Source: Candidatus Atribacteria bacterium (GTDB lineage Bacteria; Atribacterota; JS1; SB-45; 34-128). From it: a stretch of 25,769 nt of DNA. The DNA lies in NCBI GenBank assembly GCA_003451675.1, contig DMCY01000100.1, positions 2,501-28,269 of the forward strand, read 5' to 3'. The notes under the pieces are model-generated. The model was not told where the DNA came from and did not search any database. It worked only from the letters and a program-made list of their open reading frames with translations. Both the position numbers and the translations under genes were made by a program. The first letter of the stretch is position 1, and every line of letters begins with the position of its first letter. Positions 15,671 through 20,085 of the stretch are shown here, in pieces.

Positions 15671-15745
15671 TGGTGGGCGGTACTGGATTCGAACCAGTGA
15701 CTTCTTGCGCGTCGAGCAAGCATTCTACCACTGAATTAACCGCCC
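15671..15745 (-). tRNA. tRNA-Val (anticodon GAC), C33
   Basis: 75 nt including encoded CCA. Acceptor GGGCGGT/ACCGCCC with A73, D-arm ATTC/GAAT, anticodon arm CTTGC-TCGACGC-GCAAG, T-arm ACTGG-TTCGAAT-CCAGT. The anticodon is GAC. Position 33 is C rather than the near-universal U, and position 38 is also C. Last of the six-gene array; the thrS T-box starts within about 30-50 bases. Confidence 0.9.
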
Positions 15746-15788
15746 ATCTTCTTTAGACCTCTAATCATTCTTAAACCTAAAAACTAAA

Positions 15789-15862
15789 TGGAGGCGGCAC
15801 TCGGATTCGAACCGAGGATGAAGGATTTGCAGTCCTCTGCCTTCCCACTTGGCGATGCCGCC
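15789..15862 (-). tRNA. tRNA-Cys (anticodon GCA)
   Basis: 74 nt with encoded CCA. Acceptor GGCGGCA/TGCCGCC, discriminator U73 (the expected Cys identity base), anticodon loop CTGCAAA on stem GAGGA/TCCTT, T-arm CTCGG-TTCGAAT-CCGAG. Fifth in the array. Confidence 0.97.
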
Positions 15863-15882
15863 TTATTTAATTTTTATAAAGA

Positions 15883-15957
15883 TGGAGCGGAAAACGGGAT
15901 TTGAACCCGCGACCCTCGCCTTGGCAAGGCGATGCTCTACCACTGAGCTATTTCCGC
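15883..15957 (-). tRNA. tRNA-Gly (anticodon GCC)
   Basis: 75 nt with encoded CCA. Acceptor GCGGAAA/TTTCCGC, U73, anticodon arm TCGCC-TTGCCAA-GGCGA, T-arm GCGGG-TTCAAAT-CCCGT. Fourth in the array. Confidence 0.97.
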
Positions 15958-15965
15958 AATAAACT

Positions 15966-16041
15966 TGGTGCCGAGACCCAGAATTGAACTGGGGACACGT
16001 GGATTTTCAGTCCACTGCTCTACCGACTGAGCTATCTCGGC
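15966..16041 (-). tRNA. tRNA-Phe (anticodon GAA)
   Basis: 76 nt with encoded CCA. Acceptor GCCGAGA/TCTCGGC, A73, anticodon arm GTGGA-CTGAAAA-TCCAC, T-arm CCCAG-TTCAATT-CTGGG. Its ACCA end matches the UGGU of the pheS T-box and its anticodon GAA pairs with that leader's UUC specifier. Confidence 0.97.
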
Positions 16042-16079
16042 ACTTAAAATCGCCTTACATAATTATATTATTAAGAAAA

Positions 16080-16158
16080 TGGCGGGGCCGACGAGATTTG
16101 AACTCGCGATCTCCTGCGTGACAGGCAGGCGTGTTAAACCAAGCTGCACTACGGCCCC
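16080..16158 (-). tRNA. tRNA-Asp (anticodon GTC)
   Basis: 79 nt with encoded CCA. Acceptor GGGGCCG/CGGCCCC, discriminator G73 (Asp identity base), anticodon arm CCTGC-CTGTCAC-GCAGG, T-arm GCGAG-TTCAAAT-CTCGT. The D-loop is rather long. Second in the array. Confidence 0.96.
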
Positions 16159-16178
16159 CTTATGTTTTTATTAAAAAA

Positions 16179-16254
16179 TGGTAGGCGGAACAGGGCTTGA
16201 ACCTGTGACCCCTGGCTTGTAAAACCAGTGCTCTCCCAACTGAGCTATCCGCCC
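16179..16254 (-). tRNA. tRNA-Val (anticodon TAC)
   Basis: 76 nt with encoded CCA. Acceptor GGGCGGA/TCCGCCT, with a G1-U72 wobble as the terminal pair, A73, anticodon arm CTGGT-TTTACAA-GCCAG, T-arm ACAGG-TTCAAGC-CCTGT. First gene of the array, about 30 bases after its promoter. Confidence 0.95.
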
Positions 16255-17157: not shown

Positions 17158-19659
17158 TCATTTTATCACAATGTTTACCAGTTTCCCAGAAACAACAATA
17201 ACTTTTATAATCTTTTTGCCTTCGATTTTTTCTTGTATTTTTGGTATTAAGAGTGCTTCCTCTTTTATCTTCTCATCATCATAAGATGCAGGAACTGTCA
17301 ATTTCCCTCTTAGCTTTCCGTTTACCTGGACTATAATTAGTTTCTCCTCTTCTTCTAATTTCTTCTCATCATATTTAGGCCAGGGCTGCATATAAATACT
17401 TTCTTTGTTTCCCATCTTTTGCCATAGCTCTTCTGAAAAATGAGGAGCAATCGGACCCAGAAGCCTGACTATCATTTCTAAAGCCTCTTTTAAAACAAAA
17501 ATATCTACTTCTTTGCCCCGTTTTTCTTCTGCTTCTAACTGAAACTTATATACTTCATTGACTAATTCCATGATTGCACTAATAGCTGTATTGAAGTGAA
17601 ATCTTTCTTCGATATCTTCGGTAACCTTTTTAATGGTTTGATGGGTCTTCTGTCTTATTTTTTTAGCTTCAACACTTATATCTTCCGGGGAAATTTCTTC
17701 CTTATTTTTCGGCTTTTTAAAACAATCAATATTATTGTAGATTAACCGCCAAACTCGGTTCAAGAATCGAGATGCTCCTTCCATCCCTTTATCCGTCCAT
17801 TCCATATCTACTTCCGGAGGACCAGCAAACAGCATCATTACTCTGGTAGCATCAATACCGTATTTTGAAAATATTTTTCCCGGATTAACTATGTTACCTT
17901 TTGATTTAGACATCGCTGCCCCATCTTTACAGACCATCCCCTGAGTAAAAAGCCTTTTGAAGGGTTCTTTAAAATTGGTAAACCCCATATCGTATAGAGC
18001 TTTAGTAAAAAACCGAGAATATAGTAAATGTAATATGGCGTGTTCTACTCCACCGATATACTGGTCTACCGGCATCCAGTATTTTAGTTCTTCATCATCA
18101 AAAGGAGCAGTATCAGTTTTAGGAGAACAAAATCTAAAGTAATACCAGGAAGAACAGACAAAAGTATCCATAGTATCTGTTTCTCTTTTAGCTTCCTTAC
18201 CACATTTTGGACAAATTGTATTGACAAATTCTTTACTGCTTGCCAGTGGTGACATACCTTTAGGTCTGAAAACAACATTTTCCGGAAGTACAACCGGTAA
18301 GTCATTTTCGGGTACCGGAACCATTCCGCAATCAGCACAATAAATTATGGGGATAGGAGCTCCCCAATAACGCTGCCGCGAAATAAGCCAGTCTCTTAAT
18401 CTATAATTAACCTCCCTCTTCCCAGAGCCTTTTTTAATCAGATAATCAATTACAATATCTAATGACTTACTACTTGGCAAACCGTTAAATTGGCCGGAAT
18501 TAACCATAATGCCTTCTTCCTCAAAAGCAGCCTCCATAGTATCAGAGGTAACTTCTTTATCCTCTGGTTGAATAACTATTCTGATAGGTAAATTATATTT
18601 TTTGGCAAATTCAAAATCCCTTTGGTCATGAGCCGGAACTGCCATTACTGCACCTGTTCCATAGTCCATTAACACATAATTTGCTAACCAGATGGGAATC
18701 TCTTCATCATTTAGGGGATTTATTACATACTTACCGGTGAAGCATCCCTTTTTTTCTAAGATACCTGATACTCTATCTATAGCGCTCTCTTTACTTACCT
18801 TCTCTTTGAAATTCTTAACTTCATCTTTATAAGGAGAATCCTTTATTATCTCTTCTACTAAAGGGTGTTCAGGAGACAACAGAAAATAAGTTGCTCCGTA
18901 GAGAGTGTCGGGTCGGGTAGTAAAAACCGGAATAATCTTATCACTCCCTTTTATAGGGAATTCAATTCTTGCTCCCTCACTCCTGCCTATCCAATTTCTC
19001 TGCATAGTTAATACTTTTTCCGGCCATTCTTCTAAGCATTCTATATCATCGAGTAATCTCTGGGCATATTCGGTAATCTTGAAAAACCATTGGGATAACT
19101 CTTTTTTAATAACTTCGGAATCACACCTCCAACATTTTCCGTCTATTACTTGTTCATTAGCTAATACTACATTACAGGAAGGACACCAGTTAACCACTGC
19201 TTTTTTCTTATAAGCTAATCCTTTTTTATATAACTGTAAAAACATCCACTGAGTCCACTTGTAGTAATCCGGATCACAGGTAGCTATTTCTCTATCCCAA
19301 TCATAACTGATACTCATATTAGTTAGAGTATTCTTCATCTTTTGAATATTGATTTTAGTCCAGATTGAAGGATGAATTTTATTTTTTATAGCAGCATTCT
19401 CTGCAGGTAAGCCAAAGGCATCCCAGCCCATAGGGTGCAGGATATTATATCCTTGAGAATGTTTATATCTGGCCACTACATCACCGATAACGTAATTTTT
19501 CACGTGTCCCATGTGGGGTTCTCCTGAAGGATAGGGAAACATTTCTAAAACATAATATTTCGGTTTTTTAGAATCGGCATAAGATTTAAAAAAATTATTT
19601 TCCTTCCAATATTCCCGCCATTTTTTTTCGACTTCGGTAAAATTATATCTATCTTCCAT
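17158..19659 (-). CDS. leuS: Leucyl-tRNA synthetase
   Basis: Charges tRNA-Leu and edits mischarged amino acids. 833 residues, full length for the bacterial type. Seen: class I HMGH (49-52) after FPYPSGEP; a zinc knuckle WCPSC...CWRC (about 158-182); the CP1 editing domain with TTRPDTLYG (about 250-258) and [18 protein letters not shown]; a second Cys pair motif (CADC, CPKC); MSKSKGN near residue 585, preceded by Ala rather than Lys; and a C-terminal tRNA-binding domain. The ATG has AAGGAGG upstream. The leader (19686-20050) is a T-box with Leu specifier and, unusually, holds a complete tRNA-Ala gene. Confidence 0.97.
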
Positions 19660-19685
19660 CTTAAAACATTCCTCCTTAAAAATAA

Positions 19686-20050
19686 AAATCCCGTCTCAAG
19701 TAATTAAATTATTACCAGGGACGAGATTCTTCTCGTGGTACCACCCTTGTTCAGTAGATTTTATATGTTATAATTTGGTGGAGCTGGCGGGAATCGAACC
19801 CGCGACCTCCTCCACGCCAAGGAGGCGCGCTCCCGACTGCGCTACAGCCCCACATTATCTACTCTTATTAAACAATTAACGCTTGTTAACGTTGTAAACT
19901 ATATTTAAATCAATATTTTTAATTTAATTTTTCGCTTACAAAACTTGAAGGTGAGTTTAATGGTTTTTTATCAGCTTTCACCAGATGCTGATTCTCTTTT
20001 TAAAAAATATACCTTTCAGTCCTTCGCTTTGTTTTTTTCTTATTTATTTC
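19686..20050 (-). promoter_or_regulatory. T-box riboswitch of leuS (specifier CUC, Leu), interrupted by a tRNA-Ala gene
   Basis: Stem I (about 20025-19947) has the full classical form: base GAAGG/CCTTC (20025-20021 with 19951-19947), the distal module AGAGAATCAGC...GGTGAAAGCTGAT (19998-19970) with AG bulge and GGUG loop, and specifier CTC followed by A (19955-19953). A Stem II-like hairpin ACAA-CG-TTAAC-AAGC-GTTAA-TTGT follows (about 19896-19873). Stem III should come next, but its arms AGTAGAT (19863-19857) and ATCTACT (19759-19753) enclose a whole tRNA-Ala gene. The T-box AGGGTGGTACCACGAG (19747-19732) then pairs as antiterminator (GGG-bulge-ACGAG/CTCGT-CCC), with a competing terminator and T-run (about 19728-19681). 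Confidence 0.92.
19776..19851 (-). tRNA. tRNA-Ala (anticodon GGC) nested in the leuS T-box leader
   Basis: 76 nt with encoded CCA. Acceptor GGGGCTG/CAGCTCC including the G3-U70 pair that defines Ala identity, A73, D-arm GCGC-AGTCGGGA-GCGC, anticodon arm CCTCC-TTGGCGT-GGAGG, variable AGGTC, T-arm GCGGG-TTCGAAT-CCCGC. Every stem is fully paired apart from the identity wobble, so it looks functional and not decayed. It has no convincing promoter of its own; the leuS promoter (20085-20057) would transcribe it as part of the riboswitch. Confidence 0.97.
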
Positions 20051-20056
20051 GTTTTA

Positions 20057-20085
20057 AGTATAATTGAAAAAAAAATAAAAGTCAA
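20057..20085 (-). promoter_or_regulatory. Strong promoter of the tRNA-Ala / leuS unit
   Basis: TTGACT (20085-20080), a 17-base T-rich spacer and TATACT (20062-20057). It starts transcription about 25 bases upstream of the T-box Stem I. Confidence 0.8.

What the first reader, a model, noticed from the sequence alone, without database searches (positions are those of the whole stretch)
19686..20085. A complete tRNA-Ala gene nested inside the leuS T-box riboswitch
The leader from the promoter at 20085-20057 to leuS shows, in order, Stem I with AG-bulge/GGUG distal module and Leu specifier CUC, a Stem II-like hairpin, then a perfect tRNA-Ala(GGC), then the T-box antiterminator with UGGU bulge and terminator. 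The tRNA occupies the Stem III position. Both riboswitch halves and the tRNA are intact, so this is not simply a broken leader. Family knowledge: T-boxes have Stem I, II, IIA/B, III and an antiterminator on one RNA; I am not aware of one with a tRNA gene inside. It implies one RNA that both senses tRNA-Leu and releases tRNA-Ala.
Basis: partly seen in the sequence, partly recalled or inferred. Interest (0 to 1): 0.95.

Follow-up and report, generated by a model that had tools for sequence, protein, structure and literature searches.

The report
tRNA gene inside a T-box riboswitch
In the DNA ahead of a bacterium's leuS gene, which encodes the enzyme that loads leucine onto tRNA, lies an RNA switch predicted to sense leucine-tRNA; a complete alanine tRNA gene sits inside one of its stems, the same nesting occurs in several bacterial phyla, and one transcript would likely serve both as leucine sensor and as tRNA precursor.

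Summary
Ahead of leuS, one Rfam T-box hit (RF00230, 94.3 bits, gathering 93) runs across an intact tRNA-Ala(GGC) at 19851-19776(-). The tRNA sits in the tip of Stem III: helix AGUAGAU/AUCUACU closes around it, where several T-box-only leuS leaders have a small hairpin. The window is from Atribacterota. Stem III arms pair better with their own partner than with shuffled ones (0.689 vs at most 0.573). The leucine context AACTC[AG] is present in 105 of 109. Relatives show parts lost: sensor gone with tRNA and terminator kept, or T-box without tRNA. Most likely one promoter makes one RNA; the leucine decision comes after the tRNA, so only leuS is attenuated, and tRNA-Ala is cut out of both short and long transcripts. 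Co-transcription, tRNA-Leu response and excision are inferred; no RNA data were available. Ten searches of an open-licence library listed no paper that describes it.

The parts
20057..20085 (-). predicted sigma-70-type promoter TTGACT-17-TATACT for the whole leader
   Evidence: 10 of 12 consensus matches; 5 promoter-like sites in the region (both strands) against 3.0 in shuffles, so weak on its own
19947..20025 (-). T-box Stem I (GAAGG/CCTTC base, AGAGA and GGTG distal motifs)
   Evidence: cmscan alignment; sequence read-out
19953..19955 (-). specifier CUC (Leu)
   Evidence: read directly; context AACTC[AG] in 105 of 109 loci
19857..19863 (-). Stem III 5' arm AGUAGAU
   Evidence: cmscan and MFE; pairing test across loci
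19776..19851 (-). tRNA-Ala(GGC), encoded CCA, G3:U70
   Evidence: ARAGORN, RF00005 67.9 bits, G3:U70 in 111 of 111, the window included
19753..19759 (-). Stem III 3' arm AUCUACU
19717..19747 (-). antiterminator with T-box bulge UGGU at 19743-19740
   Evidence: cmscan; folds to -9.3 kcal/mol
19678..19726 (-). intrinsic terminator (stem 19726-19689, U-rich tail) that shares UCUCGUCCCU with the antiterminator
   Evidence: folds to -14.4 kcal/mol; the consensus scanner did not list it
17158..19659 (-). leuS, leucine--tRNA ligase
   Evidence: TIGR00396, 1130 bits

Best explanation
The leader of leuS matches the T-box riboswitch family and holds a complete tRNA-Ala(GGC) gene in the tip of its Stem III, so one transcript would likely act both as a leucine sensor and as a tRNA-Ala precursor. 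Predicted working: one promoter (20085-20057) starts the RNA; Stem I reads the tRNA-Leu(GAG) anticodon through CUC; RNA polymerase makes tRNA-Ala next; only then does the antiterminator or terminator form. Because the decision lies downstream of the tRNA, tRNA-Ala would be made whether or not leucine is short, and only leuS would be attenuated. RNase P and 3'-end enzymes would then cut tRNA-Ala out of both the short terminated RNA and the long leuS mRNA. The Stem III duplex closes around the tRNA, so it would hold the sensor half and the discriminator half together during that cutting. Shown: anatomy, Stem III pairing by comparison, tRNA integrity, conservation. Inferred: single transcript, tRNA-Leu response, excision, clamp.
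For: One RF00230 hit across the tRNA in the window and in 8 of 19 related loci tested. The tRNA before the T-box is Ala-GGC in 111 of 111 readable cases, the window included, with G3:U70 and discriminator A in 111 of 111, a full 7-pair acceptor stem in 109 and encoded CCA in 83. Stem III arms: 0.689 of positions paired over 85 distinct arm pairs, against at most 0.573 in 1000 shuffles and 0.571 within phylum; at least 6 of 7 pairs in 40 of 85, against at most 23. AA directly after the stem in 77 of 85, part of the known RRRxG-Stem III-AA motif. Consensus fold of 35 leaders: Stem I, the cloverleaf and the antiterminator, 34 of 57 pairs with both-side changes. leuS follows in 107 of the 120 pattern hits. 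None of the 8 dropped hits has both a tRNA and an RF00230 match. In 22 of the 25 genomes with a match to a strict pattern, tRNA-Ala(GGC) reads as a single gene, by eye.
Against: No RNA data. 11 of 19 loci fell below the T-box gathering score. The sensor is deleted or decayed in some Atribacterota (L100, L135, L137) and absent in 12 more distant ones, so it is dispensable there. In Bacillota only 8 of 27 arm pairs reach 6 of 7 pairs (Chloroflexota 19 of 32). The purine motif before Stem III is imperfect in the window (read directly). RNAalifold did not recover Stem III from the free alignment; the support comes from the anchored test. Energy-only duplexes gave a weak own-partner preference (median rank 24 of 109).
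Confidence: 0.72

Rival explanations
1. Neutral nesting: tRNA-Ala(GGC) and leuS are an old gene pair; the T-box lies around the tRNA by history and the two functions never affect each other. The sensor can rot away while tRNA and terminator stay.
For: tRNA-Ala(GGC) stands ahead of leuS without an exact T-box motif in 13 of 28 readable Atribacterota loci, 9 of 70 Chloroflexota and 1 of 70 Bacillota; in 4 of 70 Chloroflexota it lies more than 110 nt before the T-box motif, so outside the discriminator. Decay cases L100, L135, L137. All 12 distant Atribacterota without a T-box have a promoter-like site before and a terminator-like hairpin after the tRNA.
Against: Stem III pairing across the tRNA exceeds shuffles, also within phyla, so selection seems to act on the combined fold. 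This rival shares most of the main explanation and denies only the clamp.
Confidence: 0.35
2. Active coupling: cutting out tRNA-Ala changes leuS output, by stabilising the mRNA or by inactivating the sensor, so tRNA processing capacity is a second input.
For: T-box leaders such as thrS are cut by RNase J1/Y in B. subtilis (passages of PMC3542257). Pairing of 5' leader with 3' RCCA hinders RNase P (abstract of PMC9433436 in the listing), and Stem III pairs the flanks of this tRNA.
Against: Stem III pairs sequence beyond the CCA, not the CCA itself; nothing tested here shows an effect.
Confidence: 0.15
3. Two overlapping independent transcripts: the tRNA has its own promoter and the T-box RNA is a separate product.
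For: In all 12 distant Atribacterota without the T-box a TTGNNN-16 to 18-TANNNT site lies within 60 nt before the tRNA.
Against: No promoter-like site on this strand between Stem I and the tRNA in the window.
Confidence: 0.08
4. The tRNA is only a structural domain of the riboswitch and is never released.
For: It extends Stem III, which belongs to the discriminator (passages of PMC7583486).
Against: It often reads as the only tRNA-Ala(GGC) gene, keeps G3:U70 in 111 of 111 and encodes CCA in 83 of 111, and outlives the T-box.
Confidence: 0.03

Closest known systems
Transcriptional T-box riboswitch (RF00230), leuS type
   Same: Stem I, Leu specifier, UGGN bulge, antiterminator and terminator, ahead of leuS
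   Different: Stem III is opened at its tip by a complete tRNA gene of another amino acid; several T-box-only leuS leaders found here have a small hairpin there, for example L165, L173, L183, L207
thrS T-box leader of B. subtilis, cut by RNase J1/Y (PMC3542257, passages)
   Same: a T-box leader RNA that is cut
   Different: here the predicted cuts would free a tRNA
Mixed tRNA-mRNA transcripts (recalled, no call)
   Same: tRNA cut from a longer RNA
   Different: here the tRNA lies inside a regulatory RNA domain
T-boxes with insertions of unknown function (PMC7583486, passages)
   Same: lineage-specific insertions, also in Stem III
   Different: the insertion here is an identifiable functional-looking tRNA gene

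Membership tests
T-box riboswitch | match to RF00230 at gathering score | tested here: met
   94.3 vs 93 bits; in relatives 8 of 19 reach it
T-box riboswitch | specifier codon that fits the downstream gene | tested here: met
   CUC (Leu) before leuS; AACTC[AG] in 105 of 109 loci
T-box riboswitch | UGGN T-box bulge in an antiterminator that competes with a terminator | tested here: met
   19747-19717 and 19726-19689 share UCUCGUCCCU
T-box riboswitch | RRRxG-Stem III-AA motif | tested here: inconclusive
   AA follows the stem in 77 of 85 arm pairs; RAGYG or RAGYA precedes it, but the anchor itself required that; imperfect in the window
T-box riboswitch | Stem II S-turn and Stem IIA/B pseudoknot | not tested
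   helices found in that region by RNAalifold, pseudoknot not examined
T-box riboswitch | antitermination by uncharged cognate tRNA | not testable with these tools
   needs an assay
functional tRNA-Ala gene | cloverleaf, GGC anticodon, G3:U70 | tested here: met
functional tRNA-Ala gene | processed and charged in the cell | not testable with these tools
   needs RNA work

The most novel reading that the evidence does not exclude
An ancient bifunctional RNA: a riboswitch whose charge-sensing domain is folded around a precursor tRNA, so that maturing what is often the cell's only tRNA-Ala(GGC) cuts the riboswitch in two while Stem III clamps the halves, tying tRNA-Ala supply and tRNA processing to LeuRS synthesis.
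Probability: 0.2. Interest if true: 0.96.

Novelty: new variant of a known kind. Interest (0 to 1): 0.9.

Why it matters
It would be a riboswitch that also carries the gene of a different functional RNA, found across deep bacterial divergence and common: 16 of 50 Atribacterota, 28 of 251 Chloroflexota, 21 of 199 Bacillota and 12 of 43 Armatimonadota genomes by one strict pattern. It makes directly testable how a sensor works when part of it is cut out as a tRNA, and whether tRNA supply and synthetase supply are coupled. It also warns that riboswitch and tRNA annotation can overlap, and gives one identity for the unexplained insertions in T-boxes.

Tried and rejected
Assembly misjoin: rejected by recurrence across four phyla and in isolates. 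Other tRNAs nested in other T-boxes: of the 8 pattern hits that I dropped by eye, three hold another tRNA (L032 Arg-CCG, L071 Thr-UGU, L093 Arg-CCU) without an RF00230 match, one holds a T-box without a tRNA (L009), and four have neither at these thresholds (L006, L037, L077, L102). A looser pattern in 199 Bacillota genomes gave 39 matches in 38 genomes; 37 have an Ala-like tail by eye and 2 do not; of 30 loci fetched, 28 are tRNA-Ala(GGC) by ARAGORN and 2 gave no tRNA. Search for tRNA-Ala(UGC) to judge whether Ala-GGC is redundant: a pattern match in only 7 of 28 genomes, inconclusive. Energy-only duplex test of Stem III: weak, dominated by length and GC, replaced by the anchored test. A first regular expression for the specifier gave mixed codons and was replaced by the simple AACTC[AG] test, whose context came from looking at the loci. 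The first class counts for Chloroflexota misplaced several loci and were redone with a distance test. could not read 40 short loci; redone by coordinates. Classes need an exact T-box motif, so degenerate motifs count as no T-box (L270 has one), and L160 had only 172 nt upstream. Searches for a prior description: (open-licence library, listings only; some aimed at neighbouring topics); none lists it.

Full report
What is there. On the minus strand ahead of leuS (17158-19659; TIGR00396, 1130 bits) the leader reads in order: predicted promoter 20085-20057, Stem I 20025-19947 with specifier CUC at 19955-19953, a Stem II region, Stem III 5' arm 19863-19857, tRNA-Ala(GGC) 19851-19776 with encoded CCA, Stem III 3' arm 19759-19753, antiterminator 19747-19717 with bulge UGGU, terminator 19726-19689 with a U-rich tail, RBS 19677-19671, start codon 19659. 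cmscan reports one RF00230 hit over 20038-19714, 94.3 bits (gathering 93), with the tRNA as an insert in the Stem III loop. The fold of 357 nt is -90.8 kcal/mol, z -4.17, and contains AGUAGAU/AUCUACU closed around the cloverleaf.

Where else. I dropped 8 as false hits by eye (L006, L009, L032, L037, L071, L077, L093, L102); a later check found in none of them both a tRNA and an RF00230 match, though L032, L071 and L093 hold an Arg or Thr tRNA and L009 a T-box. In L014 and L099 the tRNA runs off the locus edge. The remaining 110 loci and the window, 111 in all, have tRNA-Ala(GGC). leuS follows within 3 kb in 107 of 120; the 13 without it are the 8 dropped hits and L005, L040, L051, L085, L089, where only 63 to 1673 nt of downstream DNA are held. 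Record titles name Atribacterota, Bacillota, Chloroflexota and Armatimonadota groups; a few read otherwise or only 'bacterium' (L020 Proteobacteria, L097 Desulfovibrio), and L020 lies in a genome that the tool groups with Chloroflexota. LeuS of L083 (479 residues compared) and L100, both titled Atribacterota or Ca. Atribacteria, is about 92.5% identical to the window's, so the window belongs there. With the same pattern the arrangement is in 16 of 50 Atribacterota, 28 of 251 Chloroflexota, 21 of 199 Bacillota (a second draw of largely the same genomes also 21 of 199) and 12 of 43 Armatimonadota; the reversed control pattern had no match in these searches. A looser pattern raised Bacillota to 38 of 199 genomes, with 2 of 39 matches not tRNA-like.

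Is it a working tRNA. G3:U70 and discriminator A in 111 of 111, seven acceptor pairs in 109, encoded CCA in 83. In 28 carrier genomes a tRNA-Ala(GGC) pattern without mismatches matched in 25; by eye 22 of these have one such gene and three Ktedonobacteria (L055, L056, L068) have two; further matches in five genomes do not read like tRNA-Ala. The pattern misses copies with another T-arm, and many of these genomes are incomplete MAGs, so the copy number is a lower bound; isolates such as Syntrophomonas palmitatica, Thermosyntropha lipolytica and Desulfotruncus alcoholivorax are among those with one.

Is Stem III real. In several leuS T-boxes without a tRNA, Stem III is a small hairpin, for example L165 GGTAA-TTTA-TTACC and L173 GGC-TTTT-GCC; others have longer ones. 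In carriers the same stem opens to take the tRNA. With arms anchored at RAGY[GA] on one side and 5 nt before the T-box on the other (105 of 111 have the anchor, 85 distinct arm pairs), 0.689 of positions pair against at most 0.573 after 1000 shuffles and 0.571 within phylum; 40 of 85 have at least 6 of 7 pairs against at most 19 and 23. By group this is 19 of 32 Chloroflexota, 8 of 27 Bacillota, 2 of 2 Armatimonadota and 11 of 24 not assigned. Other registers show no comparable excess. Two results are weaker: duplex energy alone ranks the own partner at a median of 24 of 109, and RNAalifold on a free alignment of 35 leaders (34 carriers that I chose, plus the window) does not include Stem III, while it does find Stem I, the cloverleaf and the antiterminator, with 34 of 57 pairs changed on both sides somewhere.

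Losses. Upstream DNA of leuS was classed in 70 Bacillota loci (30 best LeuS matches plus 40 of the others): nested 16, T-box without tRNA 21, tRNA without T-box 1, neither 32. In 70 Chloroflexota loci chosen likewise: nested 15, tRNA without T-box 9, T-box without tRNA 7, tRNA further upstream of the T-box 4, neither 34, unreadable 1. In 30 Atribacterota loci: nested 15, tRNA without T-box 13, unreadable 2. L100 lacks Stem I and Stem II, L135 lacks the 5' half of Stem I, L137 has no T-box motif, all read by eye; all keep the tRNA; L135 and the L100 genome still count as nested. All 12 distant Atribacterota (L147-L158) keep the tRNA with a terminator-like hairpin after it and a promoter-like site before it. 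L230 carries what looks like a rotten tRNA inside Stem III (read, not tested). On a FastTree tree of 170 LeuS proteins, phylum changes at least 4 times and nesting at least 12 times, and Fitch parsimony gives nesting at the midpoint root. Carriers are over-sampled, so an old origin with repeated loss is favoured, not proven.

How it most likely works. The tRNA is made before the terminator, so leucine status should set leuS and not tRNA-Ala. T-box leaders are cut or degraded by RNases J and Y in Bacillus subtilis (PMC3542257, passages); here the cuts would be made by tRNA enzymes. Stem III belongs to the discriminator, is required for it to bind tRNA, and carries RRRxG-Stem III-AA (PMC7583486, passages; PMC7778990, passages). 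A tRNA at its tip leaves that core in place. The clamp role of Stem III, co-transcription and excision are inference.

Known or not. My ten full-text searches listed no report of a tRNA gene inside a T-box. Wels 2008 (PMC2494555, passages), the T-box database paper (PMC7778990, passages) and a 2025 survey of contiguous riboswitches (PMC12452182, passages) do not mention it in the passages seen. Subscription papers were not searchable, so a mention there is possible.

Noticed in passing
L147-L158 (Atribacterota): leuS is preceded by tRNA-Ala(GGC) but no T-box motif; a promoter-like site before and a terminator-like hairpin after the tRNA in 12 of 12.
   Followed up: yes
L261, L272, L274, L275 (Chloroflexota): tRNA-Ala(CGC) and tRNA-Ala(GGC) both lie well upstream of the T-box motif of leuS instead of inside the discriminator.
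   Followed up: no
L002, L017, L029, L055, L075 and others (Chloroflexota): a tRNA-Ala(CGC) gene lies some 210 to 320 nt upstream of the nested one.
   Followed up: no
L230: Stem III of a leuS T-box holds a stretch that looks like a decayed tRNA-Ala (read).
   Followed up: no
L306, L309, L318 (Bacillota): after the nested T-box the next long reading frame is not leuS: reverse-transcriptase-like text in L309 and an acyl-CoA-ligase-like protein in L318, named from memory; L306 shows only short unidentified frames.
   Followed up: no
L012, L026: nested T-boxes with the bulge TGGA instead of TGGT, which would not fit a tRNA-Leu ending in ACCA.
   Followed up: no
window 15671-16254: cluster of six tRNA genes (Val, Cys, Gly, Phe, Asp, Val) between thrS and ssb.
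   Followed up: no
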